64,000 nucleotides of DNA. Origin: Acidobacterium sp. S8. Lineage in GTDB: Bacteria; Acidobacteriota; Terriglobia; Terriglobales; Acidobacteriaceae. Every line of letters starts with the position of its first letter. Position 1 is the stretch's first letter. Both the position numbers and the translations under genes were made by a program. This document shows positions 27,480 to 61,017 of this stretch, piece after piece. The stretch covers positions 287,467 to 351,466 of the forward strand of contig NZ_LMUM01000028.1 of the NCBI RefSeq assembly GCF_009765985.1, read 5' to 3'. The notes beneath the pieces are model-generated. The model was given only the letters and a program-made list of their open reading frames with translations, was not told where the DNA came from and ran no database searches.

Positions 27480-29807
27480 TTGATTTCCAGAAGAGGTTTT
27501 CTTGCGGGCAGTTCGGCTCTCGCTTTGCATGGCCTCAAAAAGCTTCGCGGCGCTTCGCACCATGCGGTACTCCCACAGCATCCTCAACCCGATCCTGAAG
27601 GTGTTGCGCGCTTTGTAAAGATCGCGATTGGAACCGGCGGCCACGGACACACCTATCCGGGCGCAACGGTTCCGTTCGGCATGGTTCAGCTCAGTCCGGA
27701 CACTTATAACCAGGGATGGGACTGGTGCTCCGGATACCACTATTCCGACAACTCCATCATGGGCTTCAGTCATACACACCTGAGCGGCACCGGTATCGGA
27801 GACATGCTCGATGTTCTTCTGATGCCCTGTACGGGAACGGTGAAAACGATTCCCGGCAGCCGTGAAAATCCCGATGCGGGTTACCGTTCTCGCTTCTCAC
27901 ATGACGAGGAAGTTGCCGTGCCCGGATATTATTCGGTACTTCTGCGCGATTATCAGATTCGCGCCGAACTGAGCGCGACCGCCAGGGCGGGCATTCACCG
28001 ATATACCTTTCCGGCGAGTGACAGCGGTCACTTTGTTCTCGATCTGGATCACGGCTACGCCACCGGCCCCGACAGCGTTCTATGGGCGAACATAAAAATA
28101 GTAGGCAACGATACGATCGTTGGCGGACGCAGCACAGCACGCTGGGCCAAAGGACGTGAAATTTATTTTGCTATGAAGTTTTCCCGGCCATTCGACAGGG
28201 TCGAGGTGCAAGCGGACGGCAGGAATCTGCAGGACCTCCACGAGGAAGCCAAAGGAAAATCTCTCAAATGCGTACTCCACTATGCGACAAAAGCCCGGGA
28301 AACGATACTGGTCAAGACTGGTATCTCAGGTGTAAGCGCAGAAGGCGCGTTACGCAACCTTGAGGCGGAGATTCCCGGATGGGACTTTGACGAGGTGACT
28401 GCTCAGGCTCTTCATGAATGGGAACAGGCGCTGTCGAAAATTAGAGTCGAGGGCGGAACGCAAAAGCAGCGAGAGATCTTCTATACCGCGCTCTATCATT
28501 CCCTGCTGGCTCCCACCCTTTTTGACGATGTGGACGGCAGCTACCGTGGCATGGACGACGCAGTCCATCAGCTTCCACCGGGCGCTCACAATTACAGCAC
28601 CTTCTCGCTTTGGGATACCTACCGCGCGGCACACCCGCTGCTTACACTCGTCCAGCAGGAGCGTGTGCCTGATCTCGTAAATTGCCTGATTCGCATGGCA
28701 CATGAAAGCCCTGTAGGCATGCCGGTGTGGCCGCTGCAGGCGAAAGAAACCGAATGCATGTCCGGCTACCATTCCGTGGTAGTGATAGCCGAGGCTCTGC
28801 AAAAGGGCTTCCCCGGAATCGATGTTCCTGGCGCGTATGCTGCAATGAAAAAACAGGCGCTGGAAAGCAACTACAAGGGCCTTCCTTTGTATAGAAAGCA
28901 TGGCTACATTCCGTGCGATCTGGAAGCGGAATCCATGGGTAAAAGCATGGATTATGCGTATGATGACTGGGCTGTAGCTTATGTAGCCCGCGTCGCAGGC
29001 GAGCAGAAGGATGCTGGTTTTCTCCTGGAGCGTGCGCGCAGCTATGCCAATTTATATGACAAGGAAACGGGCTTCGTGCGTCCACGCCTGGCTAATGGCA
29101 TGTGGGCAGAGCCGTTTGCGCCGAACGAGATGGGGCACTCACGGAAGTGGCGCGATTTCACTGAGTCGAATGCCTGGCAAGCGACCTTTGCGGTACAGCA
29201 TGATCCTAAGGGGTTGGCCGACCTTATGGGCGGACGTGAAATGCTGCTGGAAAAACTGGACGGCATCTTCAACGCCAGTTCCGTTATGCCTGCCGATGCG
29301 CCAGACGACATTGCTGGACTCGTCGGACAATACGCGCACGGAAACGAACCAAGTCATCACATCGCCTATCTTTATGTGTATGCCGGCGCCCCTTACAAGA
29401 CGCAGGAACGCGTCCGCAGCCTGATGGAAACGATGTATGACAACAAGCCCGATGGCCTCGCCGGGAACGAAGATTGCGGGCAGATGTCTGCGTGGTATGT
29501 CATGAGCGCTGTGGGCTTCTATGCGGTGGATCCAGTGAGCGCTAATTACGTTTTCGGCACGCCGCTGTTCGACAGGATGACTATCGATATGGGAAAAGAC
29601 CGTCAACTTATCCTTGAGGCGAAACGAGCCTCGGCAAACAGCCAATATATCGACTCCTTGAGATTCAACGGCGAACCGTATACCCGGCTTTGGTTCAGCC
29701 ACTCTTCCATCGCGCGAGGCGGCCATATCGAGTGGCAACTAACGGACCGGCCTAATGAAAGCCTCGGCTCCAAAGCTGAGGCCTCCCCACCGTCCATGAC
29801 CACATAA
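27480..29807 (+). CDS. Tat-exported GH92 alpha-1,2-mannosidase
   Basis: A 775-residue GH92 enzyme, expected to remove alpha-mannose from N-glycans or fungal mannan with calcium. The Tat signal is SRRGFLAGSSALAL at the N-terminus. Family blocks follow: GTGGHGHTYPGATVPFGMVQ, GFSHTHLSGTG, SLWDTYRAAHPLLTL, DDWAVAYVARVAG, GNEPSHHIAYLY and DCGQMSAWYVMSAVGFY. The start is a TTG at 27480 with AGGAG 7 bases upstream, and no ATG is near the signal peptide. Eight bases separate it from the next Tat-exported gene, so they form an operon. The last codons contain a near-perfect hairpin (GCCTCGGCT/AGCTGAGGC). Confidence 0.92.
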   Translation: MISRRGFLAGSSALALHGLKKLRGASHHAVLPQHPQPDPEGVARFVKIAIGTGGHGHTYPGATVPFGMVQLSPDTYNQGWDWCSGYHYSDNSIMGFSHTHLSGTGIGDMLDVLLMPCTGTVKTIPGSRENPDAGYRSRFSHDEEVAVPGYYSVLLRDYQIRAELSATARAGIHRYTFPASDSGHFVLDLDHGYATGPDSVLWANIKIVGNDTIVGGRSTARWAKGREIYFAMKFSRPFDRVEVQADGRNLQDLHEEAKGKSLKCVLHYATKARETILVKTGISGVSAEGALRNLEAEIPGWDFDEVTAQALHEWEQALSKIRVEGGTQKQREIFYTALYHSLLAPTLFDDVDGSYRGMDDAVHQLPPGAHNYSTFSLWDTYRAAHPLLTLVQQERVPDLVNCLIRMAHESPVGMPVWPLQAKETECMSGYHSVVVIAEALQKGFPGIDVPGAYAAMKKQALESNYKGLPLYRKHGYIPCDLEAESMGKSMDYAYDDWAVAYVARVAGEQKDAGFLLERARSYANLYDKETGFVRPRLANGMWAEPFAPNEMGHSRKWRDFTESNAWQATFAVQHDPKGLADLMGGREMLLEKLDGIFNASSVMPADAPDDIAGLVGQYAHGNEPSHHIAYLYVYAGAPYKTQERVRSLMETMYDNKPDGLAGNEDCGQMSAWYVMSAVGFYAVDPVSANYVFGTPLFDRMTIDMGKDRQLILEAKRASANSQYIDSLRFNGEPYTRLWFSHSSIARGGHIEWQLTDRPNESLGSKAEASPPSMTT

Positions 29808-31618: not shown

Positions 31619-34600
31619 ATGACACAACGAAGAAGTTGGCTTAAGCGCTTTCATTTGAGTTTCGTGCTCATTACAGTATGTTGCGCGAGTGTGTTGAGCT
31701 TTGCGCAAAGCGATCGCGGCAGTATATCGGGAATCGTCACCGATCCATCAGGCTCCGGAATACCGGGGGTCAAGATCACCGCTACCAATATCGCAATGGG
31801 CACGCAGAACTCTACTGTCACGACTGAATCAGGAAACTATACGATCCCGCAATTAGCCGCAGGCGAATACTCTGTGACGGTAGTTGCGCCTGGGTTTGCT
31901 GAGCTGATCCACACCGGAATTACGGTTTTGGTTGGGCAGACAGCACGTGTCGATTTGAAACCGGGTGTTGGGCAAGTCACGTCGACGGTTACGGTGACAG
32001 CGGATGCTCCTCTGCTCCAGACAGAGAGTGCACAGAACAATGTCCAGGTCACCACGAGGGACCTCAATGAGCTTCCGATCAACATTACCGGTATCGGAGC
32101 TGTGCGCGACCCGATGGGTTTTGCCGCTTTGGTGCCGGGAACCATCGCGGGCGGCTGGAACGATATCCACATCAGCGGCTCGCCCGCGACGACCTACCGC
32201 GTCTTTATGGACGGACTGGATGACACCTCGGCGGTAAAGGGCGCGATCTCCGATGAGCAGCAGCCCTCAGTCGAATCGCTCGGGTCAGAATCCGTGATGA
32301 TCAATAACTATTCCGCTAAATTTGGTCAGTCCGGCGGCGGAATCTTCAATTACACCTCGAAATCAGGCACCAGGAGACTGCATGGGTCGGCCTTCATGTA
32401 CCTCGAGAATGAGGACCTGAACGCCGGACAGCCCTTCAACTACACCCCAAGCGGCGAGAAATATAACCCGGCGCAACGGCAGCTTGACTTCGGCGGTTCT
32501 TTCGGCGGACCGGTGGTGATTCCTCACCTTTACGACGGCCGCAACAAAACTTTCTTCTTCTTCGCGTACGAGGAATACCACAACACGCAAACGCTCAACC
32601 AGGGAACCATCACGGTTCCCACGAACGCCTATCTGAATGGCGATCTGAGCTCTCTCCTGCTTGGTCCCATTGTCGATTCCAATGGGGCCCCTGTCCTCGA
32701 TTGTCTGGGTCGGCCGATGATCAATGGCGCAGTGTACAACCCGGCGACGACCAGAGTAGCAACCTGCACGGATGGCTCAACCAAAACGGTCCGGGATCCG
32801 TTCCCGAATAATTTTATCGGCGCGCCCAGCACATGGGATCCGGTGGCCCAGAAGGCTCTTGCTTACATGCCTACTCCCTCCGGGTCTACTGCCAATGCGC
32901 TGACCAACAACTATCCCAATTTGCAGCCGAACAACAAGTACCAGTACCTGACGAGCATCAAGATCGATCACTCGATCGGTGAGAAGTGGCACTTCTCGGG
33001 TTATTACATTGCCGAGTATTCCAACAAAGACAATGCTGCTAACGGCATAAACACCGCGGGAGGCTCGACCCGCTGGAATATGACGCCCGCCCCGCAGATA
33101 TATCTCAACGCGGACTATACGGCCACGCCGAATCTGGTGCTGCACGCCGGATTCGACTTTACGCGTCACAACGCCCTGCAGAATTCGGCGGTGCAGGATT
33201 TCAAAGCGTCAACTCTCGGGTTGAACACGGCGGCAAATATGCCAGGCGGCGCTGCGAATACTTTTCCGATCTTCTCCGGGCTTACCGTCAACCGTCAGAG
33301 TGTTCCGCAACTGGGAATAAACAACGCGCCGTTTATTGACAATAACTGGTACAACACTGAGTCCGCGATCTGGGTTCACGGCCGCCATGTTTTCGAATTA
33401 GGCGGCGATTTCCGTCATCAGTCGTTTGGCACTCACAACGACCTGTCGGCCGGGTCTTACGGTTTCTCTGCCGATCAGACGTCTCTGCCGTCGTCCCAGG
33501 GCCAAAACCTTTATGGAGCGAGCCTCGGCGACGGTTTCGCGAGCTTCGTTCTTGGCCAATTGAGTGGCGCAAGCATCGGGAACGATAACATTCAGTGGTT
33601 TCACCGTCTGGAAGGCGGGCTTTACGTGCTGGACACCTGGAAGCTCACGCGCAACCTCACAGTGAACTATGGACTGCGCTGGGATCTCGAACAGATGCAA
33701 CGTGAACAACATGACCGGGAAACGCAATTTAGTCCCACTGTCGTGAATCCGTCAGCTGGCGGCCTGCTGGGTGGAACCGAATACGAGGGATATGGGCAAG
33801 GACGTTGCAACTGCATTTTCGAGAAGTTCTATCCCTGGATGGTTCAACCTCGCCTTGGTATCAGTTATCAACTGGATCCAAAGACCGTACTCCATGCGGC
33901 GACCGGACTTTACTCTGGCCCGCAGCTCTTCATGAACGAAGAGATCTACAGCAACCAGGGATTTGGCTTTAACCAGGTGTTCCTGACCAGTCCTTCGTAT
34001 GGCATTGCCGCTGGACAGCTTTCTAATGGCATACCGTACTCCTCGGCTGCTCTGACAGCTACCGACTTCGACCCTGGCGCCTATCCGAACATCGGTCAAC
34101 TCAACTCGCCCCCGCCGTTCATTGTTCCCAACAATGGTCGTCCGCCACGTTTCCTGCAATCAACCGTTTCCATCGAGCGCGAGATTGCAAACAGCCTGGC
34201 GCTCAAAATATCCTACCTCAGTAACCGCGGTGCCTGGCTCAACTCCGACGGGCTCACGAATACTATAAACGAGCTCACTCCTACGGTCCTCTCACAGAAA
34301 TATGGTTTAAATGTTGCCAACCCAAACGACTTCAATCTGCTGACGCAGCCGATCTCTTCTCCTGCCGTGGCGGCAAGAGGCTTCGTGGCTCCGTACTCCA
34401 CTTTCCCGTCTGGAGCCACACTGGCCCAGGCATTACGGCCATTCCCGCAATTCGGTAATATTGGCGACTACTACGAGCACAATGGCAATTGGTGGTATGA
34501 CGCGCTTCAAATCCAGGTTACCAAACGTCTCAAGAACGGATTGTCGGGTGGTCTCGGTTACTCTTGGTCGAAGAATCTGGGAACCATCACCAGTACTGGA

Positions 34601-35293
34601 ACTTACACCGTGGCGATGCCGGTACAGGATCCCAGCCAGCCGGCCAAGAACGCAAAATCCTATGTGGCCATCGACCAGCCGCACATGCTCAATTTTTACT
34701 TCAATTACGAGGTGCCGAGATTCAGTTTTGCGCAAACGGGCTGGAAGCGCCTGCTATTAACCGGCTGGACAACTGATGGAATTTTCCATTACCAGAGCGG
34801 TTTTCCGATACAAACACCGAATTCGACGAGCCCTCTAACTTCTGTGACGTTCGGTAACGCAGTCTGGGCGAATCGCGTTCCAGGTCAGAAGCTCTTCCTG
34901 CACAGCCTCAACAGCCACAACGTCGATCCCCACACTACGTTCTTTCTCAATCCCGCTGCGTGGGCAGAGCCGGCCCCCGGAACCTACGCTACTTCCAAGC
35001 CTTTCTATGGCGATTATCGTGGTCCGAGATATCCAAACGAACAGTTGGGCTTCGGCAAGGTCATCCCTCTTAAGGAGGGGCTGAAATTTTCGCTCCGCGC
35101 GGATTTCTTCAATGTCTTTAATCGCTGGGCGTATCCTAACCTGAATAACACGTCAAATCCTTTTCAGACTCCTCAGTATGCGAGCGACGGAAGCATTTCC
35201 AACGGTTTCGGCTTCTTCGGAGATGGCATCTCCGGCGCGGGCGGCAACTTTGCTCCGAGAAGTGGCGAGTTCGTCGCGAGAATCGAATTCTAG
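31619..35293 (+). CDS. TonB-dependent receptor, Oar-like
   Basis: A 1224-residue outer-membrane receptor for energy-dependent uptake of a large substrate, probably an oligosaccharide. The signal peptide is at about 1-30 (ending SFAQSD), a carboxypeptidase-regulatory-like domain at 32-112 (GSISGIVTDPSGSGIPGVKI), the plug at about 120-235 (ELPINITGIG), and then a long beta-barrel with VNYGLRWDLE, QLGFGKVIPLKEGL and a final VARIEF. The length is typical for this acidobacterial class. AGGTCAGG lies before the ATG. A perfect palindromic terminator follows. The ASPIC/UnbV and TPR genes downstream are a usual partner set, but the substrate is unknown. Confidence 0.92.
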   Translation: MTQRRSWLKRFHLSFVLITVCCASVLSFAQSDRGSISGIVTDPSGSGIPGVKITATNIAMGTQNSTVTTESGNYTIPQLAAGEYSVTVVAPGFAELIHTGITVLVGQTARVDLKPGVGQVTSTVTVTADAPLLQTESAQNNVQVTTRDLNELPINITGIGAVRDPMGFAALVPGTIAGGWNDIHISGSPATTYRVFMDGLDDTSAVKGAISDEQQPSVESLGSESVMINNYSAKFGQSGGGIFNYTSKSGTRRLHGSAFMYLENEDLNAGQPFNYTPSGEKYNPAQRQLDFGGSFGGPVVIPHLYDGRNKTFFFFAYEEYHNTQTLNQGTITVPTNAYLNGDLSSLLLGPIVDSNGAPVLDCLGRPMINGAVYNPATTRVATCTDGSTKTVRDPFPNNFIGAPSTWDPVAQKALAYMPTPSGSTANALTNNYPNLQPNNKYQYLTSIKIDHSIGEKWHFSGYYIAEYSNKDNAANGINTAGGSTRWNMTPAPQIYLNADYTATPNLVLHAGFDFTRHNALQNSAVQDFKASTLGLNTAANMPGGAANTFPIFSGLTVNRQSVPQLGINNAPFIDNNWYNTESAIWVHGRHVFELGGDFRHQSFGTHNDLSAGSYGFSADQTSLPSSQGQNLYGASLGDGFASFVLGQLSGASIGNDNIQWFHRLEGGLYVLDTWKLTRNLTVNYGLRWDLEQMQREQHDRETQFSPTVVNPSAGGLLGGTEYEGYGQGRCNCIFEKFYPWMVQPRLGISYQLDPKTVLHAATGLYSGPQLFMNEEIYSNQGFGFNQVFLTSPSYGIAAGQLSNGIPYSSAALTATDFDPGAYPNIGQLNSPPPFIVPNNGRPPRFLQSTVSIEREIANSLALKISYLSNRGAWLNSDGLTNTINELTPTVLSQKYGLNVANPNDFNLLTQPISSPAVAARGFVAPYSTFPSGATLAQALRPFPQFGNIGDYYEHNGNWWYDALQIQVTKRLKNGLSGGLGYSWSKNLGTITSTGTYTVAMPVQDPSQPAKNAKSYVAIDQPHMLNFYFNYEVPRFSFAQTGWKRLLLTGWTTDGIFHYQSGFPIQTPNSTSPLTSVTFGNAVWANRVPGQKLFLHSLNSHNVDPHTTFFLNPAAWAEPAPGTYATSKPFYGDYRGPRYPNEQLGFGKVIPLKEGLKFSLRADFFNVFNRWAYPNLNNTSNPFQTPQYASDGSISNGFGFFGDGISGAGGNFAPRSGEFVARIEF

Positions 35294-46820: not shown

Positions 46821-49800
46821 ATGAAAAAGAGAATCGATTTTGTGCTTACGCTCGCACTTACGATTGTTGGCACCACCTTCGCGATGGCGCAACAGTCTCC
46901 TGCGGGTGGCGTCGTTCCTCCAGACAGGCCTCAAGGCTCGTGCGACATTTACGCGGCTGCCGGTGACCCATGTGTCGCGGCACATAGCACTACCCGTGCG
47001 TTATATGCGACCTATAACGGCCCCCTCTACCAGGTTTTGCGCCAATCGGACGGTAAGACCCTGGACATTGGCGTTGTCCAGGCTACTGCTACGCAAGTGC
47101 CGGATCCCGGCGGATACGCGGACGCAGCCGCACAGGATAAATTCTGCGCCGATACCTATTGCTGGATCAGCATCATCTACGACCAATCTCCCAAACACAA
47201 CGATTTAATTCAGGCTCCCCGTGGCGGATTCAGCGGCACGGCCTTGGGCGGCTTCAACAACCTTCCTATTGCCGATATGGCGCCAATTACGATCATGGGG
47301 CACAAGGTCTACGGTGTCTTCATCGAACCAGGCATGGGACTTCGCCAGAACAATGTGAAAGGCACCGCAGTCGACGACCAGGCGGAGGGGCAATACTGGG
47401 TCGTCAGCGGGAAGCATTTCAACGCCGGTTGCTGTTTCGACTACGGCAATGCCGAGATTGACAGTCGCGATGATGATAACGGCACTATGGAGACCCTCTA
47501 CTTCGGTAACGCCACGCCGTGGTACAGCGGAGCTGGTGACGGGCCGTGGATCATGACCGATCAGGAAAATAATCTTGTCGGGTGCGTCAACGAGGATGGG
47601 ACCAAAGGCTGTCCCAATTTACCGAGCATCCCCTGGCGCTTTGTAACCGCAATCGGTAAAGGAGAACCACACCATTGGACATCCATGGGTGGTGACGCGC
47701 AAAAGGGCGTTCTGTCACTCATGTTCGATGGGCACCGTGTGAATCCAACCTACGACCCGATGCGCAAACAGGGGGCGATTCTCCTGGGCAACGGGGGTGA
47801 CAATAGTGTCGGTTCACAAGGAACGTTCTATGAAGGAGCGATGACTGCGGCTGGCACGTTCCCATCGAACGCTAGCGACCAGCTTGTCCAGGCAAACATT
47901 GTGGCTGCTAGATACGATGTGGCTCCACTTAGTCTGGCTCCGGCTGCGACAGCAAAAACGCATGCAGGCCCGCAGACCTTTACTCCGGGATCCTCGCGAG
48001 ACTTCACCGTGACATTCACGAATACAACAGGTGCGCCCGCATCGGACATTTCATTGAGCATCGCTGTACCTAGCAAACAGTGGACTGCTGTCGTTTCAGG
48101 CACGAACGAAAAGTCTAAGACGTTCGCTCAACAGATCGCTCCAGGTGCGAGCGTGAGCGAGACTTTCACAGTCACCTCAGCGTCAGCAGCCTTCAACGGT
48201 GATCTCGTCGGCCATGCATTGTGGATGAATTCGACCAATGGCAGAAAGCAGGTTGAAACGGCGGTTGAAAAGATTCGTAATGCAAGACCAGTCAAAATCA
48301 ACGAGTTTCGAGTTAACTCAAGCGCTCCCGGCAACCCGACAGATTCATTTATCGAACTCTACAACGCAGGTTCTCAAAGCGTCGATCTCTCCAACTGGAC
48401 ATTGACCGAGCACCCAGCCCACCAGGCAATCTTCTCGACGGTAAAGATCCCGGCCGGAACGAAGCTTGCAGCCGGTGGCTTCTACCTGCTCGGGCTCTCT
48501 AACTCGGGGCTGGCGGTTCCCGCACACGCAGGTGACAGCACCATCCATGTCAGAAACACCGACGGAATGTCGGTCGGCGACACGATCAACATCGGCATCG
48601 GCTCCAGTATGGAAGCGCGCAAGATCGCAAGCCTGGGGACGGCTGTCAGCAACCATACAACGTTGTGGCAATCGCTTCCCGAAGAACCAGTGATCGCGAT
48701 TCCTGCCGGCTCGACCAATGTGCCGGTTGAAGATGCATCTGGCTTTGTCATTGGTCAGAAGATTGCGCTTGGCTATGGCTCTACCTATCCGATCGTTGCT
48801 AATACTAGGGAGCAGTACGAGATTGCGACAGTGACGGCAGTTGGTAAGCCTGGCACACAAGCATATCTGGCGATGGAAGCACCTGCGGGAGCCACCAACA
48901 TCCAAGTGACGTCCCTCACAAATATCTCCACCGGTGACAAGATCAGGTTGGACATTGGCAGCGTTGGTCACGGGATCGAAACCGTAACGGTGGCCCATGT
49001 CGGTACAGCAGCGAATCAGACCAATCTCTCAGCTCCTGCGAGCGCCGGAGCAACCCGGATCAGCGTGCGCCGAGCGGAGGGTTTCGCCGCAGGCGACAAG
49101 ATCACAGTCGGTACGCCAGCAAGCCAGCAAACCGTTACCGTTACCGCTGTGGGCACCCCGGAATCGGATGGTACGCCCATCGACTTCACACCCGCCCTTG
49201 CCAAACCTCATGTAGTCAGTGAATGGGTGGTATCTCCAGGAACCGGCCTGGACCTGGCAGCTCCCTTACGGTTTAATCATGCGGCCAACCTGCCGTTCAG
49301 CGATCGCGGCACGGGAATCAGCTTCCAGCCAGCAACTGCCTTTGCCCATTCGAGCAACGAGCCAGTCCAGGCGCTCGGGACAGGCATAACGCTGGATAGA
49401 CCACTGACCAACGATCACGCGATCCACGCGGCCGTACGCGATGCCGCAGTAAAGACCGCCGGATACCAGGGTATGCCAACGCCCAACCAGTGGTTCGGCG
49501 GACCGGAATTAACCACGAAGTCTCCGCAATTCGGCCGTACTCTCACCGTCGAAGAAGGCAGCATCATACTACGCGATCCCTCGGGCGTGGTTGCCGACAG
49601 CCTTAACTATGGAGGCCTTGTCGATCCATGGGCCGCAGAAGGGGATCAGGCTGTCTCAGGAACTCAGTTAAGTGGCTGCTACGCCCCGGCACCTGGCTCA
49701 GTTTTCAACCCCTGGTCGACGGTTGTGGCGCCTGTTGCCATCAATACAAGCGCGGGACGGTTTCCTGACGGCGCCGATACCGACAGCAACTGTGCAGATT

Positions 49801-50288
49801 TTTCAACGCAGGCCGCTGCCTCTTTGTCGGCTACGTCGGCTGTGGGTGCAACGAACATCAAGGTCGCCAGTACGGAAGGCTTCCGTCCAGGCCAGACAGT
49901 TCATATTGATTCTGGTGCAGATACTGAAACTGCCGTCATCGCCGCGGTTGGAACGGCAGGTGCCACGACGGTACGCACTTCCATTGATGCTGGAGCAACT
50001 CTTCTGCCTGCCGTAAGCGTGACTGGCTTTGGTAAAGGCCAAACAATCACGATCGACGAAGGAGCAAATGCTGAAACGGCTGTTGTTTCATCGATCAGGG
50101 CCCGTGGTGCCGCCACCATTACCGTCGTCGCACCCCTCGCTCGTGCTCACACGGCAGGCGCTCAGATCTCGGGTAGCGGCATCAGCCTCATCACTCCACT
50201 AACTCGGACTCATACCAACGGAGCGCAGGTTTCCGATAGCGTTCCAACTCCCGGCGCGCCGAACCAATATAGCGGTAGAAATCATTGA
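46821..50288 (+). CDS. Multidomain GH54 alpha-L-arabinofuranosidase with split lamin-tail domain and repeats
   Basis: A 1155-residue secreted enzyme, expected to release arabinofuranose from arabinan or arabinoxylan. The signal peptide covers 1-24. The GH54 domain is at about 38-368: CDIYAAAGDPCVAAHSTTRA, the Cys-pair and presumed nucleophile region NAGCCFDYGNAEID (Glu212), and presumed acid/base Asp292 (GGDAQ). A NEW3-like beta domain at about 380-485 follows. A lamin-tail domain starts at 491 (VKINEFRVNS) and is interrupted at about 566-895 by Ala/Gly-rich repeats (SGF.xGxKI type with ...ETVTVxxVGT), then resumes at 905-995. More such repeats fill 1000-1140. Most fungal-type GH54 enzymes are about 500 residues. 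ATG 46821 fits the signal. Confidence 0.88.
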   Translation: MKKRIDFVLTLALTIVGTTFAMAQQSPAGGVVPPDRPQGSCDIYAAAGDPCVAAHSTTRALYATYNGPLYQVLRQSDGKTLDIGVVQATATQVPDPGGYADAAAQDKFCADTYCWISIIYDQSPKHNDLIQAPRGGFSGTALGGFNNLPIADMAPITIMGHKVYGVFIEPGMGLRQNNVKGTAVDDQAEGQYWVVSGKHFNAGCCFDYGNAEIDSRDDDNGTMETLYFGNATPWYSGAGDGPWIMTDQENNLVGCVNEDGTKGCPNLPSIPWRFVTAIGKGEPHHWTSMGGDAQKGVLSLMFDGHRVNPTYDPMRKQGAILLGNGGDNSVGSQGTFYEGAMTAAGTFPSNASDQLVQANIVAARYDVAPLSLAPAATAKTHAGPQTFTPGSSRDFTVTFTNTTGAPASDISLSIAVPSKQWTAVVSGTNEKSKTFAQQIAPGASVSETFTVTSASAAFNGDLVGHALWMNSTNGRKQVETAVEKIRNARPVKINEFRVNSSAPGNPTDSFIELYNAGSQSVDLSNWTLTEHPAHQAIFSTVKIPAGTKLAAGGFYLLGLSNSGLAVPAHAGDSTIHVRNTDGMSVGDTINIGIGSSMEARKIASLGTAVSNHTTLWQSLPEEPVIAIPAGSTNVPVEDASGFVIGQKIALGYGSTYPIVANTREQYEIATVTAVGKPGTQAYLAMEAPAGATNIQVTSLTNISTGDKIRLDIGSVGHGIETVTVAHVGTAANQTNLSAPASAGATRISVRRAEGFAAGDKITVGTPASQQTVTVTAVGTPESDGTPIDFTPALAKPHVVSEWVVSPGTGLDLAAPLRFNHAANLPFSDRGTGISFQPATAFAHSSNEPVQALGTGITLDRPLTNDHAIHAAVRDAAVKTAGYQGMPTPNQWFGGPELTTKSPQFGRTLTVEEGSIILRDPSGVVADSLNYGGLVDPWAAEGDQAVSGTQLSGCYAPAPGSVFNPWSTVVAPVAINTSAGRFPDGADTDSNCADFSTQAAASLSATSAVGATNIKVASTEGFRPGQTVHIDSGADTETAVIAAVGTAGATTVRTSIDAGATLLPAVSVTGFGKGQTITIDEGANAETAVVSSIRARGAATITVVAPLARAHTAGAQISGSGISLITPLTRTHTNGAQVSDSVPTPGAPNQYSGRNH

Positions 50289-51418: not shown

Positions 51419-52071
51419 GGCAGAGTAGGGGTAGCGCCTCGGCGATTTTAACTCCCCTTATTTGCTTCCCATGATCTTTGCCAAGCGTTCCGCCGCATTA
51501 CCGAGGAGTGCCGTATCAATATTAGGAAACATGGTTATCGCGGATGAGATGAAGCTGTGATTTCGCATAGCAGCCTGTCGCCCTAAAGTGGTAGACCCAG
51601 AATGCATCCTTAGTGGTCAGATTTTAGGCCCATGAGAATTTTAAGTCGAGTAAGACTTAAGGGAGGCACCTAAGCCTAGTTTCGGGCCATAATACCGAAG
51701 GACAAAAGTTCGGACAGAGCTGCAGGTTGTGATATCGCCTGAGTAAATCTGCTTAGTTGACCAGACGGGGAAGGTGCCAATCGATTTTCCTATTTGTGTT
51801 TTGATCGTTCACCCAGTAAATAACCTGAAGATCTATGTCAATCGTTCCAGCCGAGTCAATTTAGCTCATTCCAAGTGAGGGATTCTTGGGGCCAAGTTGC
51901 AATAATGGTTCTAGCCGGACGTGCCGAGGACTTTTGATAATGCTGGTTATCAGAAACTATCCGGAGTATAGTGCCGAGGTGTCGAAACAAAGGAGGAAGT
52001 CCCCGATAGATGGCGTGACAATTGAGCAGAACGCGGGTTCATGCGCGGACTATGCAGGGGCTTGGATCACT
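51419..52071. other. Intergenic region with an inverted repeat
   Basis: About 650 bp without a recognisable gene. TTAAGTC-GAGTAA-GACTTAA at 51641-51660 is a perfect 7-bp inverted repeat. The frame of the next gene is open from 51886 but has no coding features there. Confidence 0.4.
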
Positions 52072-53274
52072 ATGAGCTTAGAAAAAAATCGTAAAGCACT
52101 TCATGAGGCGATCCTTGATCTCGACCTAAACGATGACGATCAGGGGAAAGTCGCGGCAACCACTGTCATCCGGCAGGACTGGGGGAAGGCAGAGCGCCTG
52201 ATCAAGGAGTGGTGGAGCGCCTACAAAGCTTGGGAAAGCGCCGACACCTTCAATCAGGCTGTTGCGGAACATCGAATGACGATGCGGTCGTTCAGCGGGG
52301 CTTTTGACAAACTGCTGAATAAGACGGGACCGATGAACATAGCCTCCGAAGATAGGTTCTATGCCAACTCTGATCGTCAACCTGTCGCGGGACCTCCCGC
52401 AGGGGCAACATGCCACAAAGAGAAGTTCAATGCGATCGTCGACCCGAAGCCGACAGGCATGGGTTGGACCGTCCGCAACCCCAAACCACCGGTAGTGTAC
52501 GGCGCTCCTAATCGCGGGATCAACACCACGGCGTTTATGAAGCCGGCGAATTTCAAGACCCGCAAGCTGAAGTACCAACTTGGCCTCCACGATCTCAGTG
52601 TAAAACTGGTGATACCGGGCCGTAAGTGGTACGCTGCGGCCCAGATCAAAGAGCCTGAGAGGATCAAGAATCTCGAGGACAAGGGCGTCAAGGCCCAGAG
52701 CCACCACAGCGGACCAGGGAAAGCGTACTTCTGTTTTCTACCCCTCTCGAAGCCGGAGGATCAATATGTGATCTACAAACTCGTTCGATATGCGAAGGCA
52801 CTCAGGATGGAGATTCCGGAGCTGTACGAGTTGATCCTCGGGTATCGCAGCGAGATGACGCGCGTGAAACTGGCACACGGCTTCGACATGGGTACTGGTT
52901 ACATCGCGGTGGAGACAAAAGATCCCACCGACAATATCCCGTACAAAGTGAGCTACAGCATCGGAAATGCGGCCAAGGAAAGAAGAGCAGAGCCCGGTGC
53001 GATCGGTAAAGTTAACGAACCCGTCAACAGCGACCTTATTCGTAAGCGACAGCAGGCTTATTTCAAACACAATGCAGACGTCGCAATGCTTGGGAACGAG
53101 ATCGTAATCGCGATGCGCGAGCACGCAGGCTCGTTCCCGGTCTACGCCTTTTCTACCGGCGCCGAGTTCACTTGCTTCACTATCCGAGAAGACGGCACAG
53201 CCGATTGCAACTCTGATGGCACACCAAAGCCCAACGGCAAAACCATCACCGAGCAAGGAGTTGCCAGTTTCTAA
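52072..53274 (+). CDS. Orphan protein of unknown function
   Basis: A 400-residue soluble protein (start MSLEKNRKALHEAILDL chosen over an upstream frame from 51886). An acidic helical N-terminal part (about 1-80) is followed by a mixed region with VVYGAPNRGINTTAF, LGLHDLSVKLVIPGRKWYAA, RYAKALRMEIPELYELILGY and GEIVIAMREHAGSFPVYAF-type blocks. There is no signal peptide, transmembrane helix or motif I recognise, and no metal or nucleotide-binding signature. Charged and aromatic residues are well spread, consistent with a real globular protein. It stands alone between long gene-free stretches and next to a recombinase remnant, as cargo of a former mobile element might. Confidence 0.65.
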   Translation: MSLEKNRKALHEAILDLDLNDDDQGKVAATTVIRQDWGKAERLIKEWWSAYKAWESADTFNQAVAEHRMTMRSFSGAFDKLLNKTGPMNIASEDRFYANSDRQPVAGPPAGATCHKEKFNAIVDPKPTGMGWTVRNPKPPVVYGAPNRGINTTAFMKPANFKTRKLKYQLGLHDLSVKLVIPGRKWYAAAQIKEPERIKNLEDKGVKAQSHHSGPGKAYFCFLPLSKPEDQYVIYKLVRYAKALRMEIPELYELILGYRSEMTRVKLAHGFDMGTGYIAVETKDPTDNIPYKVSYSIGNAAKERRAEPGAIGKVNEPVNSDLIRKRQQAYFKHNADVAMLGNEIVIAMREHAGSFPVYAFSTGAEFTCFTIREDGTADCNSDGTPKPNGKTITEQGVASF

Positions 53275-53618: not shown

Positions 53619-54545
53619 CTAGGAAGACTTGCTTGGTGGCACAATCGGCAGACCCGCTGCTCGCCATGCATGAAATCCACCGACCATATCCGTCGCGCGC
53701 CAGAGTCCGAGATCCTGCAGAGTTGTGGCCGCGAGGCTTGAGGCATAGCCCTCAGAACAGAACACGATCACCTGTAGGTCGTGATCAGTCGCGACAGCCA
53801 GCCGCGCACTGGAACCCGGGTCAAACCGCCACTCGAGCACGTTACGTTCGACAACCACCGCTCCCGCGATACTGCCCTCGCTCGCGCGCTGGCCCTCGGG
53901 ACGAATATCGACGAGAGTCGCCTCTGCTTTGACCATCGCCTCATAGGTCTCATTCGGAGATAGTCGTCGCAGCCGGGTACGTGCCGCTGAAAGCACGTGC
54001 TCAATGCTCACTACACCGGTCCGGTTTCCGGATTTCCGGATTTGCGCGTTCCACTCATCATCGAGCGTCTCTGCCCGCTCAGACCCGCCGTCACGCGGAA
54101 CCAGTCGACTTCCATCCAGCTCATACTCGTTCATCTCATTGAGTGGAGGGGAGTATGCGTGAATGCTGATGGCTGGCGCGAGGGAGACGTTACGAACGTC
54201 ATGCGCGTAGTCGGGGCCGAATGCGCGCGGCTTGCCCGGATGTATCACGCGGGTCCGCTCATCAACACAATGCTCCTCAAGAATCCCGGTTGCCACAACG
54301 AAAGCTCCCGATGATGGACCGTGATCGTGGAAGCCGGTGGATTGTCCTGGCATCCAGCTGATCACCCAAATGTCATAGTCGGGACCGTGATATAGGCGCT
54401 CATACCAGCGCCGTTCGGCACGCAGCCGAACCCGGTCCATCCATCCATCAGACGACGCGAAACGCGCAACGAAGCTGGCGAGTTCCTCAGGCGTTCTCGA
54501 GCCCGCGCCGGATAGGTCCAGAACATCATTCATACTCTGATTCAT
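53619..54545 (-). CDS. Cysteine dioxygenase fused to rhodanese
   Basis: A 308-residue bifunctional protein. The N-terminal cupin-type cysteine dioxygenase (about 1-160) has the iron ligands His73, His75 (GFHDHGPSSGAF) and His115 (DYAHDV), with a Tyr in HAYSPP near the active site. It would oxidise cysteine to cysteine sulfinate. The C-terminal rhodanese (about 190-305) has DIRPEGQR and the active-site Cys263 in VIVFCSEGYASS. I chose ATG 54545 because GGAGGG precedes it. The gene upstream (54560) ends 14 bp away and is probably in the same operon. Such fusions are known in some bacteria and link cysteine oxidation to sulfane transfer. Confidence 0.9.
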   Translation of the reverse strand: MNQSMNDVLDLSGAGSRTPEELASFVARFASSDGWMDRVRLRAERRWYERLYHGPDYDIWVISWMPGQSTGFHDHGPSSGAFVVATGILEEHCVDERTRVIHPGKPRAFGPDYAHDVRNVSLAPAISIHAYSPPLNEMNEYELDGSRLVPRDGGSERAETLDDEWNAQIRKSGNRTGVVSIEHVLSAARTRLRRLSPNETYEAMVKAEATLVDIRPEGQRASEGSIAGAVVVERNVLEWRFDPGSSARLAVATDHDLQVIVFCSEGYASSLAATTLQDLGLWRATDMVGGFHAWRAAGLPIVPPSKSS

Positions 54546-54559
54546 GCTGTGCCCTCCGG

Positions 54560-55009
54560 CTACTCCGGTTGATTCAGGTTGACCCGATGAATAGGGAGAT
54601 CCCAATGGTTCGCAGTCAGCTCCCATCGTCGGTTTTCGTCCCGTTTAAACGCTGCCTGGTCGGGAAAAAGCTGCTTTCCGACCTCCGCCTCGGATTGTCC
54701 AAGTGGCGCGTCGTGCGACGCCCGGGTGATGACGACGCGATAGTCCCAACGTGATTCTTCGCTCGTGTGCAGGCTTGGTGTCCAGACCGTGTAATCGAGC
54801 ACATACCCAAGCTGCTTCTGCCGCTCAAGGATGGCAAGCTGATATTTGCGGAAAATCTGAAGCCACTCGTCCTCGAAGCCATACCGGACTCTGTAAACCC
54901 ATTCCACCGTCTCCGGTTTCGAATGGCTGGTCTGGGCGGCGATAGGGAGCGAAAGAATTCCCAGAAATGAGAGCAAGAAGATGCGCTTAGTGAAAGCAGC
55001 GAATTGCAT
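54560..55009 (-). CDS. Secreted hypothetical protein
   Basis: A 149-residue exported protein with a signal peptide (RIFLLSFLGILSLPIAAQTS) and a mature domain rich in Trp, Tyr and Arg: VEWVYRVRYGFEDEWLQIFR, YVLDYTVWTP and DYRVVITRASHDAPLGQSEA. The pattern recalls the beta-alpha-beta units of dimeric ferredoxin-like proteins. It is 14 bp upstream of the cysteine dioxygenase-rhodanese gene in the same direction. I chose ATG 55009 because a GGAGAG site precedes it. I recognise no function. Confidence 0.7.
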   Translation of the reverse strand: MQFAAFTKRIFLLSFLGILSLPIAAQTSHSKPETVEWVYRVRYGFEDEWLQIFRKYQLAILERQKQLGYVLDYTVWTPSLHTSEESRWDYRVVITRASHDAPLGQSEAEVGKQLFPDQAAFKRDENRRWELTANHWDLPIHRVNLNQPE

Positions 55010-57747: not shown

Positions 57748-60700
57748 TCAAAAAATAATTTTCAATCCAAATTGTGTATTGAAAGGCTCTCCTGGCCCAA
57801 TGCCCGGGGCACCGTTGTAATCGCCAATCGTGTCGGAAATGATACCGAAGCCATCGCCGACTGTATTCGAGGGTGGAGCAAGATTCTTGCGATTGAAGAC
57901 GTTAAATAGCTCCGCGCGGAACTGGATTTTGACCCATTCTCCGATGTTGCCTGTCTTGAAAACGGAGAGGTCAACATCCTCAAATCCCTGCCCAAAGAGT
58001 TGATTGCGCCTTGAAGTTCCGACGAACGTGCCCGCCGGCCCATCTGCAAAGGCAGCAGGATTGACCCAGGTTACCTGCTGATCCGCGAACTTGTGACTAA
58101 CGCCCGCATAAGGATCACGCAGTACCTGTACCGCACGCTGGTAGCCCTCGCCTGTTCCTGAGTTGTCGCTGGAACTCAGTACAGAAAACGGCTCTCCGCC
58201 ATGAAGTGAGACAAGACTGTTTACCTGCCAGCCATGCGAAAGCCAATGTGGTCCGGAAGATAATCCGGGCACATCGTAGATGAAATAGGCACTGAAAGTG
58301 TTTCTGACGTCGTAGTCACTGTTGCCATAATCTCCCTGAATATTCGTGCTGTCTTGTGGAAGCACGTTGCGCCATTGAGTGCCTTCATCCAGGCTATGGC
58401 CCCATGTATAGGAGGCTTGAGAACTAAGCCCATGCCAACTCCTCAGACGCACTACGGCTTGCAGCGCGTTGTAATTGGAGTTGCCGGCGCTGGCCGCCTC
58501 GTTAATAGCGCCGTAGTTTGGAAATGCAGAATAGTAGGGCCGACTGATCTGTTGGGTATACGCATCTACATTTGCTCCTGCAGAATTGAACGCCGGTTGA
58601 TTGATGTCCCGCAATAAAATCAGCTTCCTGCCTGCACTTCCCACATAACCAAGCTGCGTAACTACTTTCGACCCGAAGCTCTTCTGGATATTCAAGCTGT
58701 AATTCACATCGTGAGGATTGCGGAGATTTTGATCTACGGAGAAGAGTCCGCACGGGCTGACATTATCAGATGTGACGATGCAAGCGGTTTCGGGATCGAC
58801 GCCCGTTGGAGCGAGCAATTGGTCAGGCACGATCACTTGCGTTGGAATACCAAGTGTCAGGACAGGACTTGGGCCTGCCGGATTTCCCTGCAAACCAACG
58901 GCTCCGCCATTGCCAGGGTTCTGGGACAAGAAGATATTCAGATTTGGAGTATCAAAAAACAGTCCGACTCCGCCCCGAATCACTGTGTTGCCATTGTCCT
59001 CTGGCTGCCAGGCAAAACCTAAACGCGGGCTCAGACTAATATAGTCCGCTGGATAAACCGAACCGATACCAGCGCCTTGAAAGACAATACCACCCTTGTC
59101 CGGAACAAAAACCGAGAGGTCCTTGGTGTCATTGTGCAGCGGACCCTCGTAGTCATACCGAATGCCATAGTTCAGGTTGAACTTATGAGAAAGCTGCCAC
59201 GCATCCTGGCCGAAGAGAGCAAACGTGTTTACGAACACCTGACGCTCTGGATCTCCACGGGCAATCGTACCTCGATCAAGATATCCGCCGAGAAAATCCG
59301 CCAGGATAAGAGTATTGGTGTCCGCATTCAAGTCACTTGGAGTTGGCGCAGTTGCCCACGGTCCACGCTGGCCGGAGAAGGTAAATGTGCCACGTTGATT
59401 TGTGTGATAGAACTCGTCCAACTGCACTTGGCGAAATTCGCCGCCAAACCGGAATTGATGCGCGCCGACCGTCCATGAAAGTGCGTCCGTTATGTGGCCA
59501 GTGATATCGTTACGGCCCAGCGGCGGAGTAAGTCCGACTTCTCCAAGTTGCGAAGTCGCCTGCTGACCGAGCTTGATTTCGGGCGCTCCAAGAATGCTAG
59601 CGCCAGTATTGAAGCCGAGTGCAATTGGATCGAAATCGGTATTGAAATCCAGAAATACCTGATTAAAGTAATTCACACCGACAAGAACCTGATTTGTAAT
59701 CGTAGGTGAGAGTTGTGAGTTCACAACGATCGCATAGTTCTGAACATGTGTCGGTGCGGTCTGATAATACCACTGCAGTTGCGAGCCAACCGGAGCCGCG
59801 GAGTTTCCCTCACCTGAAAACCAGTGAAATGAAATACTGTTGTGATCGTTGATGTTGTAATCCGCTTTGATGATGCCGTTGTAGCTATAGCCATCCTCCG
59901 GATCGGAGCTGCTGTAATTGTTTGGAGATGCTGGTCCGTTGAGTGCGTTTGCTGGCCAAAGCGTGTTCAGCAGCGCTTGGGTGGCAGTATTGATCGGCAC
60001 ATTGTGCTCAGTGAGTAGAGCAGAAGCCTGTGCCTGGTAGGCGAGGGAAGGTTGCGTGGACCTGCCTGAAAGTCCTATGACAAACCTCTGCTTCTCAAAA
60101 GCTCCAAAGAAAAACAACTTGTCGCGAAGGATCGGGCCGCCGAAAGATCCGCCGACGTTATAGTTGCGAACTTTCTGTTTCGTGTCCTGGAATGGAGAGC
60201 CCGCTCCGAAGAACTCGTTCCGGTTGAAGTAATATGCGGTGCCATGGAATTGATTTGTGCCTGACTTTAGGCCGAGGTTGACCGTGCCACCAGGATTGCG
60301 CCCCGCTTCCGGAGCGGACTGCGTTTGCACGGAAAAAGACTCGACCGCATCGACGGGCATTATCACACCGGCTATACCTGAGACACCACTTTGATTCACA
60401 GCTGGGATGTTGTGCCAAGCGTCATTGTTATCTACACCGTCGATCTGCCAGTTGATTTGATTGGTTCGAGTACCGTTCAGGGAACCGTCTGTGCCATTCG
60501 CCGAGTACCCTGCAAAACCAGGCGTCAGTGCAAGCAGTTGAGTAAAGTCTCTGCCATTTAGCGGAATATCCTGCACCGACCGTTCTGCAATTGTGCTGGT
60601 CTGCGTAGGAGACGTCGTATCCAGAGCCAGAGTGGAAGCAGATACTTCTACTGTCGTATTTTGCGAGGCGGGGGAAAGCTTGACTGGCAGGCTATAGACC

Positions 60701-61017
60701 GCCCCCGCCGATACGGGGACCCTGTTCGTCTTCACCGTTTCAAAACCTGGCGCTGAAACAGTGATGGTATAGCTGCCCAGCGGTAGGTCCTGGAAAGTGA
60801 ATTCGCCTGCACTGGAAGAAACGGTTTGATGCAATTGCCCGGTGCCATCATTAACTGCCTGCACACTAGCACTAGAGACGGTTGCTCCTGAAGCATCCGT
60901 CACGATGCCACTGATTCCACCTCGAAATGTTTGCGCGTTTACTGGGAATGCCCAAATCGCGAACACTGCGACAGTGATAGTAATGTCCCGCAACCATTGC
61001 GTCATTCGTAAGTGCAT
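57748..61017 (-). CDS. TonB-dependent receptor, Oar-like
   Basis: A 1089-residue outer-membrane receptor. The signal peptide is at about 1-29 (ending FPVNAQT), a carboxypeptidase-regulatory domain at 32-112 (GGISGIVTDASGATVSSASV), a plug at about 120-240 (RSVQDIPLNGRDFTQLLALT and WQIDGVDNND), then a long beta-barrel with LNYGIRYDYEGPLH, VKIQFRAELFNVFNRKNL and a final TQFGLKIIF. CGGAGG precedes the ATG. It is probably an uptake receptor for a sugar or peptide, given the SMP-30 lactonase and GH36-like genes on the other side of a 988-bp divergent region. Confidence 0.93.
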   Translation of the reverse strand: MHLRMTQWLRDITITVAVFAIWAFPVNAQTFRGGISGIVTDASGATVSSASVQAVNDGTGQLHQTVSSSAGEFTFQDLPLGSYTITVSAPGFETVKTNRVPVSAGAVYSLPVKLSPASQNTTVEVSASTLALDTTSPTQTSTIAERSVQDIPLNGRDFTQLLALTPGFAGYSANGTDGSLNGTRTNQINWQIDGVDNNDAWHNIPAVNQSGVSGIAGVIMPVDAVESFSVQTQSAPEAGRNPGGTVNLGLKSGTNQFHGTAYYFNRNEFFGAGSPFQDTKQKVRNYNVGGSFGGPILRDKLFFFGAFEKQRFVIGLSGRSTQPSLAYQAQASALLTEHNVPINTATQALLNTLWPANALNGPASPNNYSSSDPEDGYSYNGIIKADYNINDHNSISFHWFSGEGNSAAPVGSQLQWYYQTAPTHVQNYAIVVNSQLSPTITNQVLVGVNYFNQVFLDFNTDFDPIALGFNTGASILGAPEIKLGQQATSQLGEVGLTPPLGRNDITGHITDALSWTVGAHQFRFGGEFRQVQLDEFYHTNQRGTFTFSGQRGPWATAPTPSDLNADTNTLILADFLGGYLDRGTIARGDPERQVFVNTFALFGQDAWQLSHKFNLNYGIRYDYEGPLHNDTKDLSVFVPDKGGIVFQGAGIGSVYPADYISLSPRLGFAWQPEDNGNTVIRGGVGLFFDTPNLNIFLSQNPGNGGAVGLQGNPAGPSPVLTLGIPTQVIVPDQLLAPTGVDPETACIVTSDNVSPCGLFSVDQNLRNPHDVNYSLNIQKSFGSKVVTQLGYVGSAGRKLILLRDINQPAFNSAGANVDAYTQQISRPYYSAFPNYGAINEAASAGNSNYNALQAVVRLRSWHGLSSQASYTWGHSLDEGTQWRNVLPQDSTNIQGDYGNSDYDVRNTFSAYFIYDVPGLSSGPHWLSHGWQVNSLVSLHGGEPFSVLSSSDNSGTGEGYQRAVQVLRDPYAGVSHKFADQQVTWVNPAAFADGPAGTFVGTSRRNQLFGQGFEDVDLSVFKTGNIGEWVKIQFRAELFNVFNRKNLAPPSNTVGDGFGIISDTIGDYNGAPGIGPGEPFNTQFGLKIIF

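What the first reader, a model, noticed from the sequence alone, without database searches (positions are those of the whole stretch)
46821..50288. Lamin-tail domain split by inserted repeats in a GH54 enzyme
The lamin-tail domain begins at residue 491 and resumes near 905. Between them lie about 330 residues of Gly/Ala-rich repeats of 60-75 residues (pattern: ATxIxV, GFxxGxxI, ETxTVxxVGT), and more follow to the end. At least six copies are visible. The repeats are nested inside a domain instead of attached to an end. They could bind a polysaccharide or the cell surface. I know no described arabinofuranosidase of this build.
Basis: partly seen in the sequence, partly recalled or inferred. Interest (0 to 1): 0.6.

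Follow-up and report, generated by a model that had tools for sequence, protein, structure and literature searches.

The report
Arabinose-trimming enzyme with nested barrel domains
A secreted bacterial enzyme that should trim arabinose from plant polysaccharides carries six small barrel domains planted in two loops of an immunoglobulin-like domain; this odd build is shared by relatives from several bacterial phyla, and what the barrels do is still untested.

Summary
The 1155-residue protein is a secreted GH54 alpha-L-arabinofuranosidase (catalytic domain 41-365), then a NEW3 domain, then a lamin-tail domain (LTD) interrupted twice: after residue ~564 (four repeats plus a hairpin block, ~324 residues) and after ~997 (two repeats plus hairpins, ~143 residues). 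PTPGAPN at the C-terminus closes the LTD. Joining the pieces extends the Pfam LTD match from profile position 70 to 108 of 109; none of nine shuffled controls passes 75. AlphaFold2 models are confident. One repeat unit (R4) folds as a small barrel like the 'rider' of phage K1 lyase, phage tail and coat insertion domains, and a GH110 enzyme's barrel. The build is not a one-off: of the 80 best loci kept from 213 relatives, 74 hold an ORF matching over 1000 residues of it, from six named phyla. The parts list (GH54, NEW3, LTD, internal repeat) is already in print (PMC8155123, passages seen); I found no account of the nesting or the barrel fold in the open-access papers searched. Most likely role: an accessory arm in place of CBM42 that holds substrate or shapes the enzyme surface. 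That role is inferred, not shown.

The parts
46821..46892 (+). Predicted signal peptide (residues 1-24, ...AMA|QQ), judged by eye
   Evidence: sequence; poorly conserved N-terminus before the GH54 domain
46941..47915 (+). GH54 catalytic domain (residues 41-365); nucleophile E249 (= E221 of AkAbfB), acid/base D327 (= D297, recalled), adjacent C204-C205
   Evidence: PF09206 1.8e-121; 6sxt 2e-102 by sequence, Z 45.9 by structure; E249, D327, C204, C205 invariant in 77 rows
47982..48203 (+). NEW3 / NPCBM_assoc domain (residues 388-461)
   Evidence: PF10633 25.9 bits, cut-off 24.4
48276..48509 (+). Lamin-tail domain, part 1 (residues 486-563)
   Evidence: PF00932 48.4 bits, profile 5-74 of 109
48513..49484 (+). 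Insert 1 in the lamin-tail domain (residues 565-888): R1-R4 plus hairpin block
   Evidence: AF2 model of 562-893 pLDDT 90.9, pTM 0.82
48516..48656 (+). Repeat R1 (566-612)
   Evidence: 77 of 77 rows at 60% coverage
48696..48860 (+). Repeat R2 (626-680) with a loop extension (GYGxTYP...ExYE)
   Evidence: 77 of 77 rows; aromatic positions
48867..49016 (+). Repeat R3 (683-732) with conserved GHGIETV
   Evidence: 73 of 77 rows; in the paralogue rows the aligner splits one repeat over R3 and R4
49023..49190 (+). Repeat R4 (735-790); the unit whose barrel fold was matched (730-807)
   Evidence: 47 of 77 rows at 60% coverage
49227..49439 (+). Hairpin block (803-873), three GTG units with invariant H820 and nearly invariant H843
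49485..49811 (+). Lamin-tail domain, part 2 (889-997)
   Evidence: extends the Pfam LTD match to profile 108 of 109 when joined to part 1; no match on its own
49812..50240 (+). Insert 2 in the lamin-tail domain (998-1140): R5, R6 and hairpins
49818..49961 (+). Repeat R5 (1000-1047)
   Evidence: 77 of 77 rows
49968..50105 (+). Repeat R6 (1050-1095)
   Evidence: 76 of 77 rows
50241..50270 (+). Lamin-tail domain, closing segment with PTPGAPN (1141-1150)
   Evidence: T1143, P1144, G1145, N1148 in 90% or more of 77 rows; 4q1z alignment ends at 1147; that such a motif closes LTDs is recalled

Best explanation
This is a secreted retaining GH54 alpha-L-arabinofuranosidase of a distinct bacterial subfamily. 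In place of the CBM42 of fungal AbfB it has a C-terminal arm: a NEW3 domain, then a lamin-tail domain. Two loops of that lamin-tail domain carry short tandem arrays of rider-type beta-barrels (four and two) plus beta-hairpins. Shown by computation: catalytic residues kept, six homologous repeats, the LTD interrupted twice, one unit's barrel fold, and the arm shared across phyla. Inferred: all six units share that fold, and the arm acts as a CBM-like accessory arm that keeps the enzyme on arabinose-decorated polysaccharide and shapes the approach to the active site, with the conserved R2/R3 loops and the hairpin block as the contact surface.
For: GH54 domain and kept catalytic residues. AbfB/CBM42 not among the Pfam matches at E up to 1. 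LTD interruption: 48.6 to 55.5 bits and profile end 70 to 108 on joining; nine of nine shuffled joins stop at profile 71-75. Models pLDDT 81.6 / pTM 0.82 and 90.9 / 0.82. Barrel fold of the R4 unit: tail tube 9n71 Z 11.9; K1 lyase Z 11.2, 76 residues, rmsd 2.0, chain 139-229; GH110 8yk3 Z 8.3; P22 coat Z 8.1; the repeat's sequence profile also has 9n71 as its best, non-significant PDB hit (0.014). In K1 lyase the rider joins both carbohydrate sites and stabilises the trimer (PMC8822698, passages); in GH110 small barrels mediate dimerisation and a helix of one folds along the active-site wall (PMC7939477, one passage). Conserved non-core-type residues in insert 1: W616 94%, Y656 86%, Y666 95%, H717 95%, H820 100%, H843 99%. 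The array is kept as a unit: same-position identity 0.54-0.71 across 15 proteins against 0.29-0.43 between positions within one protein.
Against: No binding data; no ligand site was computed; coordinates and PAE were not given to me, so exposure of the conserved residues and contact between arm and catalytic domain are unknown. Foldseek itself has no PDB match for the insert at E 0.001 or better (best 1.3e-3), and the aligner's notes warn that Z below about 13 can be a common arrangement in repeats. The rider sequence profile is below its cut-off. Only the R4 unit, lacking in 30 of 77 rows at the coverage used, gave the listed fold rows. Fixed copy number fits a structural role as well as binding. 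The two paralogue rows printed lack the R2 loop extension.
Confidence: 0.45

Rival explanations
1. The barrels are a structural and oligomerisation scaffold: they stabilise the protein or pair subunits, and do not bind sugar themselves.
For: Rider mutations lower thermal stability and riders bridge subunits in K1 lyase (PMC8822698, passages); small barrels contribute to the GH110 dimer (PMC7939477, one passage); copies are individually conserved by position.
Against: Conserved histidines, tryptophan and tyrosines in the insert go beyond what a barrel core needs; that they are exposed was not checked.
Confidence: 0.35
2. The arm attaches the enzyme to the cell surface or to a matrix of the producing cell.
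For: Secreted, long beta-rich arm; rider-like modules also occur singly in prepilin-like proteins of the same phylum.
Against: No sortase, PEP-CTERM or transmembrane anchor seen at the C-terminus (by eye); relatives with the arm come from several phyla.
Confidence: 0.15
3. The inserts are neutral decoration: barrels that spread by duplication without function.
For: R4 falls short of 60% coverage in 30 of 77 rows.
Against: The hairpin block, R2 and R3 (mean share of the commonest residue 0.77 each) are as conserved as LTD part 1 (0.77) and more than NEW3 (0.70); the array predates the divergence of these proteins.
Confidence: 0.05

Closest known systems
GH54 AbfB of Aspergillus kawachii (1wd3, 6sxr-6sxt)
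   Same: Catalytic domain over its whole length, nucleophile, acid/base and adjacent cysteines
   Different: AbfB has a C-terminal CBM42 (recalled; AbfB + CBM42 in all Fungi members in PMC8155123); here NEW3 + LTD with nested repeats instead
Bacterium I GH54 sequences with LTD, NPCBM_assoc, RICIN and RPT1 (PMC8155123)
   Same: Much the same parts list, in a group that includes Acidobacteria, Verrucomicrobia, Proteobacteria and Actinobacteria; RPT1 (a SMART internal-repeat label, recalled) presumably marks these repeats
   Different: The passages read give no nesting, no fold and no family-wide conservation; I did not match accession numbers
Rider domain of Klebsiella phage K1 lyase (7w1c/7w1d, PF24149)
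   Same: Barrel fold of one repeat unit; also inserted into a host domain; in a polysaccharide-active enzyme
   Different: One copy in a beta-helix turn; sequence profile match below cut-off; here tandem arrays in an LTD
Barrel domains of GH110 galactosidases (8yk3; PdGH110B)
   Same: Small barrel carried by a glycoside hydrolase, fold match Z 8.3 to 8yk3
   Different: Host is a beta-helix catalytic domain, not an accessory domain
DUF4876 protein BT_1938 (4q1z)
   Same: 165 residues between 453 and 1147 align at Z 13.6, rmsd 2.8, 18% identity
   Different: Whether it holds a lamin-tail fold, and its own layout, were not examined

Membership tests
GH54 | Catalytic domain profile PF09206 over cut-off | tested here: met
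   405.6 bits against 25
GH54 | Catalytic nucleophile and acid/base residues | tested here: met
   E249 and D327 align with E221 and D297, counted by hand in the alignment (D297 as acid/base is recalled); both invariant in 77 rows
GH54 | Arabinofuranosidase activity | not testable with these tools
   No assay
Lamin-tail domain (PF00932) | Profile score over cut-off | tested here: met
   48.4 bits against 34.3
Lamin-tail domain (PF00932) | Complete domain once inserts are skipped | tested here: met
   profile 5-108 of 109 when joined; 0 of 9 shuffled joins reach beyond 75. 12 of 12 joined rows match LTD, but the profile span was shown only for this protein
Lamin-tail domain (PF00932) | Lamin Ig fold | tested here: inconclusive
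   Confident model; the structure row spanning the interruptions is 4q1z, not a lamin
NEW3 / NPCBM_assoc (PF10633) | Profile over cut-off | tested here: met
   25.9 against 24.4 bits
K1-lyase Rider (PF24149) | Sequence profile over cut-off | tested here: not met
   12.8 bits in insert 1, 23.4 in relative L099, cut-off 27
K1-lyase Rider (PF24149) | Barrel fold, inserted in a host domain | tested here: met
   7w1d_D Z 11.2, 76 residues, rmsd 2.0, for the R4 unit only; the other five units were not searched alone
Carbohydrate-binding module | Demonstrated sugar binding | not testable with these tools
   No assay; AbfB/CBM42 not among Pfam matches at E up to 1
FliMN_C / SpoA (PF01052) | Profile over cut-off | tested here: not met
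   18.2 (whole protein) and 20.9 (insert 1) against 23.8; relative L099 totals 29.9 but no single stretch passes, so summed weak repeats

The most novel reading that the evidence does not exclude
The rider-type barrel is an unnamed insertion module that bacteria plant into unrelated hosts (lamin-tail domains, minor pilins, G8/CEMIP-like proteins, pectate-lyase-like helices). In this GH54 subfamily two loops of one Ig-like domain grow barrel arrays that together grip polysaccharide, making a new CBM family with a new two-fingered geometry.
Probability: 0.2. Interest if true: 0.62.

Novelty: new variant of a known kind. Interest (0 to 1): 0.42.

Why it matters
It turns a puzzling repeat region into a defined, testable accessory arm in a whole GH54 subfamily that should act on plant arabinose side chains. 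It also links that arm by fold to phage depolymerase, tail and coat insertion domains. If the barrels bind sugar, they would be a new CBM family: in this protein the Pfam and NCBIfam scans covered the repeats with no family over its cut-off.

Tried and rejected
Rejected: chance low-complexity repeat (controls; insert 1 composition equals the protein's). Rejected: one-off insertion in this genome (74 of the 80 kept loci hold an ORF matching over 1000 query residues). Rejected: recent repeat expansion. Not supported: a conserved operon partner. Of seven neighbouring window ORFs only the MacB-like one has matches, in 2 of 80 loci; many loci have less than 6 kb of flank, so the test is partial. 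Rejected: SpoA/FliMN_C identity. Mobile-element context was not searched.

Led nowhere or weak: NCBIfam, none; PDB by sequence with the repeat profile, best 0.014 to tail tube 9n71 over half a unit; PDB by sequence with the joined-LTD profile, best 0.19, nothing credible, and with the joined window sequence, best 0.42; PHROGs, 0.021 and 0.039, the latter a distal tail protein; tblastn of residues 562-1155 in 50,697 phage records, no match at 0.01; plasmids, a full-length relative of that stretch in Novosphingobium sp. P6W at 47% and one 22% fragment; Foldseek on viral models, 28 matches at 0.001 or better, mostly long poor superpositions; paper searches for 'rider domain'. No lamin entry is among the listed fold rows; that is no evidence of absence. 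In one search rows 6-50 except 46 are low-identity matches mainly to the catalytic domain. PMC7315648 was opened for GH54 passages only and says nothing there on domains. PMC6083626, listed for lamin tail domain and arabinofuranosidase, was not opened.

Dropped rows: of 80 loci, six (L044, L047, L052, L067, L075, L081) gave no ORF covering over 1000 query residues and were left out; four loci gave a second paralogue, so 78 ORFs. Alignment A1 holds this protein and 76 of those 78; I left out L003 and L011 as close copies. Of 14 joined-LTD rows made, 12 were aligned; L056 and L076 were left out. Of 41 GH54 matches, 30 were held as loci (29 and this genome's own, L112) and all 30 were classed; 11 were not. 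In one search five loci from the minus strand were first read on the wrong strand and then read again; one search had the same fault and was redone.
Full report
What is there. The ORF from ATG 46821 to the stop ending at 50288 codes for 1155 residues. Pfam finds the GH54 catalytic domain at 41-365 (1.8e-121), NEW3 at 388-461 and the lamin-tail domain at 488-567, the last covering only profile positions 5-74 of 109. By sequence, the strong PDB matches are AbfB structures, over residues 38-445. The AbfB nucleophile E221 (position named in the title of 6sxr) aligns with E249 and the acid/base D297 (recalled) with D327, counted by hand; both are invariant in 77 aligned rows, as are C204 and C205. 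A signal peptide is apparent by eye.

The repeats are real. Profiles built from the family columns of one copy find most or all of the other copies in this protein, well above 200 shuffles, with a few weak pairs: R1 on R2 0.16, R3 on R2 0.031, R3 on R6 not found; the best shuffle hit of any profile is 0.071. The six cores lie at 566-612, 626-680, 683-732, 735-790, 1000-1047 and 1050-1095. A block with three GTG motifs (803-873) follows R4, and hairpins follow R6. Gly+Ala is 0.24 in insert 1, the same as in the whole protein, and 0.31 in insert 2.

The lamin-tail domain is interrupted twice. Part 1 alone scores 48.6 bits and ends at profile 70; joined with 892-1000 and 1139-1155 it scores 55.5 bits and ends at 108 of 109; the second part alone has no match. 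With slightly different cut points the true join scores 55.3 bits and ends at 108, while nine joins with shuffled second parts score 46.8-48.3 and end at 71-75. Twelve of twelve joined rows (this protein and 11 relatives) match LTD, though the span was shown only for this protein. In the closing PTPGAPN (1142-1148), T1143, P1144, G1145 and N1148 are kept in 90% or more of rows.

Structure. AlphaFold2 on 77 aligned sequences gives pLDDT 81.6 and pTM 0.82 for the whole protein; 960-973 and parts of the catalytic domain are below 50. Residues 562-893 alone give 90.9 and 0.82. I had no coordinates or PAE. In the second-look alignment one solved structure, 4q1z (DUF4876, Bacteroides), aligns 165 residues between 453 and 1147 at Z 13.6, rmsd 2.8. 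Residues 453-566 number 114, so at least 51 aligned residues lie beyond the first interruption, and the last is in the closing motif. That 4q1z holds a lamin-tail fold I did not verify, and the range gives first and last residue only.

Fold of the repeat. The unit at 730-807 (R4 with its closing strand pair) matches 9n71 phage tail tube (Z 11.9, 73 residues, rmsd 1.5, 29% identity), K1 lyase 7w1d (Z 11.2, 76 residues, rmsd 2.0, 24%), Chi tail tip 8vjh (10.8), phi92 tailspike 6e0v (9.3), P560 depolymerase 7vul (8.9), GH110 8yk3 (8.3), P22 coat 8i1v (8.1) and, lower, many EF-Tu entries at about 7. Against this: plain Foldseek has no PDB match at 0.001 or better (best 1.3e-3, the same 9n71), and the tool warns that Z under about 13 may be a common arrangement for repeats. 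The sequence profile of the repeat has the same entry, 9n71, as its best PDB hit, not significant at 0.014. The matched K1 lyase stretch, 139-229, lies in the part the authors call the rider (they mutated K154, K167, T213 and H215 there): a barrel-like fold of two three-stranded sheets and a short helix in a turn of the beta-helix, similar to the P22 I-domain, taking part in both carbohydrate sites and in stability (PMC8822698, passages). In GH110 two small barrels surround the beta-helix and contribute to the dimer, and a helix of one folds along the active-site wall (PMC7939477, one passage). The other five copies are assigned this fold by sequence homology, not by fold searches of their own.

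The build is a shared subfamily. A scan of genome contigs found 213 relatives and kept the best 80; 74 of the 80 give an ORF matching over 1000 query residues and four of those loci carry a second paralogue. In 77 rows R1, R2 and R5 are kept in 77, R6 in 76, R3 in 73 and R4 in 47 at 60% coverage. The two paralogue rows printed have one repeat where most rows have R3 and R4, split by the aligner. Copies at one position are on average 0.54-0.71 identical among 15 sampled proteins, while copies within one protein are 0.29-0.43 identical. The array was thus set up before these proteins diverged and has not been homogenised since. The tree holds Acidobacteriota 43 rows, Bacteroidota 14, Planctomycetota 6, Pseudomonadota 5, Verrucomicrobiota 3, Gemmatimonadota 2 and ungrouped 4; it needs 8 changes of phylum where 5 is the least, which is no proof of transfer, as labels are the submitters' and many rows are bins. 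In the window's own family 35 of 200 genomes have GH54. Of the 30 GH54 loci held, 20 have catalytic, NEW3, LTD and R1 profiles and 10 match only the catalytic one of the seven profiles tested; some of those 10 are long, with other C-terminal parts. The window's genome has one GH54 gene. In eight genomes of relatives searched with the repeat profile every listed match lies in a frame of 1095-1206 residues, the size of this enzyme.

The module elsewhere. In 247 Acidobacteriota genomes 17 have a repeat match at 1e-4. Three (G000, G203, G242) are this enzyme or, in G242, a fragment of it. The other 14 have single internal copies: prepilin-like proteins in nine, G8/CEMIP-like proteins in one genome (four frames, two read), pectate-lyase-like helices in two, a protein with a HEXXH stretch in one and a multihaem protein with PKD domain in one. 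Pfam was run on seven of these proteins: L085, L089, L093, L094 and L098 have matches at or over cut-off, L087 has one below it, and L096 none; the other names are by eye. In this sample the module is always planted inside a host.

How it may work. The catalytic step is that of GH54. The arm takes the place of CBM42. Conserved residues in the insert that a barrel core would not demand (W616, Y652, Y656, Y666, H717, H820, H843) and the precedents of K1 lyase and GH110 make a substrate-holding or cleft-shaping arm the first choice, at about 0.45. A stabilising or oligomerising scaffold is a close rival at 0.35. Nothing here tests binding.

What is in print. PMC8155123 lists the combination ArabFuran-catal, RICIN, LTD, NPCBM_assoc and RPT1 in Bacterium I GH54 sequences and speaks of such sequences as not yet characterized (passages). 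The eight searches made showed no title or abstract start describing the nesting or naming the barrel in such enzymes. Only open-access papers were searched, most were seen as listings, and PMC6083626 was not opened.

Noticed in passing
L085, L086, L087, L088, L090, L091, L092, L095, L098: Single rider-like modules sit inside prepilin-like proteins of nine Acidobacteriota genomes, after the N-terminal hydrophobic helix (Pfam N_methyl at cut-off for L085 and ComGF over cut-off for L098).
   Followed up: partly
L089, L105 (G187): G8 + CEMIP beta-helix proteins carry one module between the two domains (Pfam for L089); G187 has four matching frames.
   Followed up: partly
L029, L046, L050, L060: A second, shorter paralogue of this GH54 enzyme lies near the first; the four rows form one fully supported group, and the two rows printed lack the R2 loop extension and have one repeat in place of R3 and R4.
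   Followed up: partly
L083, L103 (G203): Two of the copies in one genome seem to leave frame soon after the start of R6; may be a sequencing or assembly error.
   Followed up: no
window 53619-54626 (-): Cysteine dioxygenase-type cupin joined to a rhodanese domain.
   Followed up: no
window 51886-53274 (+): 462-residue ORF downstream of the enzyme with no Pfam match at E up to 1 and no match in the 80 loci.
   Followed up: no
window 27480-29807, 31619-35293, 57748-61017: A GH92-type gene and two outer-membrane barrel proteins with carboxypeptidase-regulatory domains.
   Followed up: no
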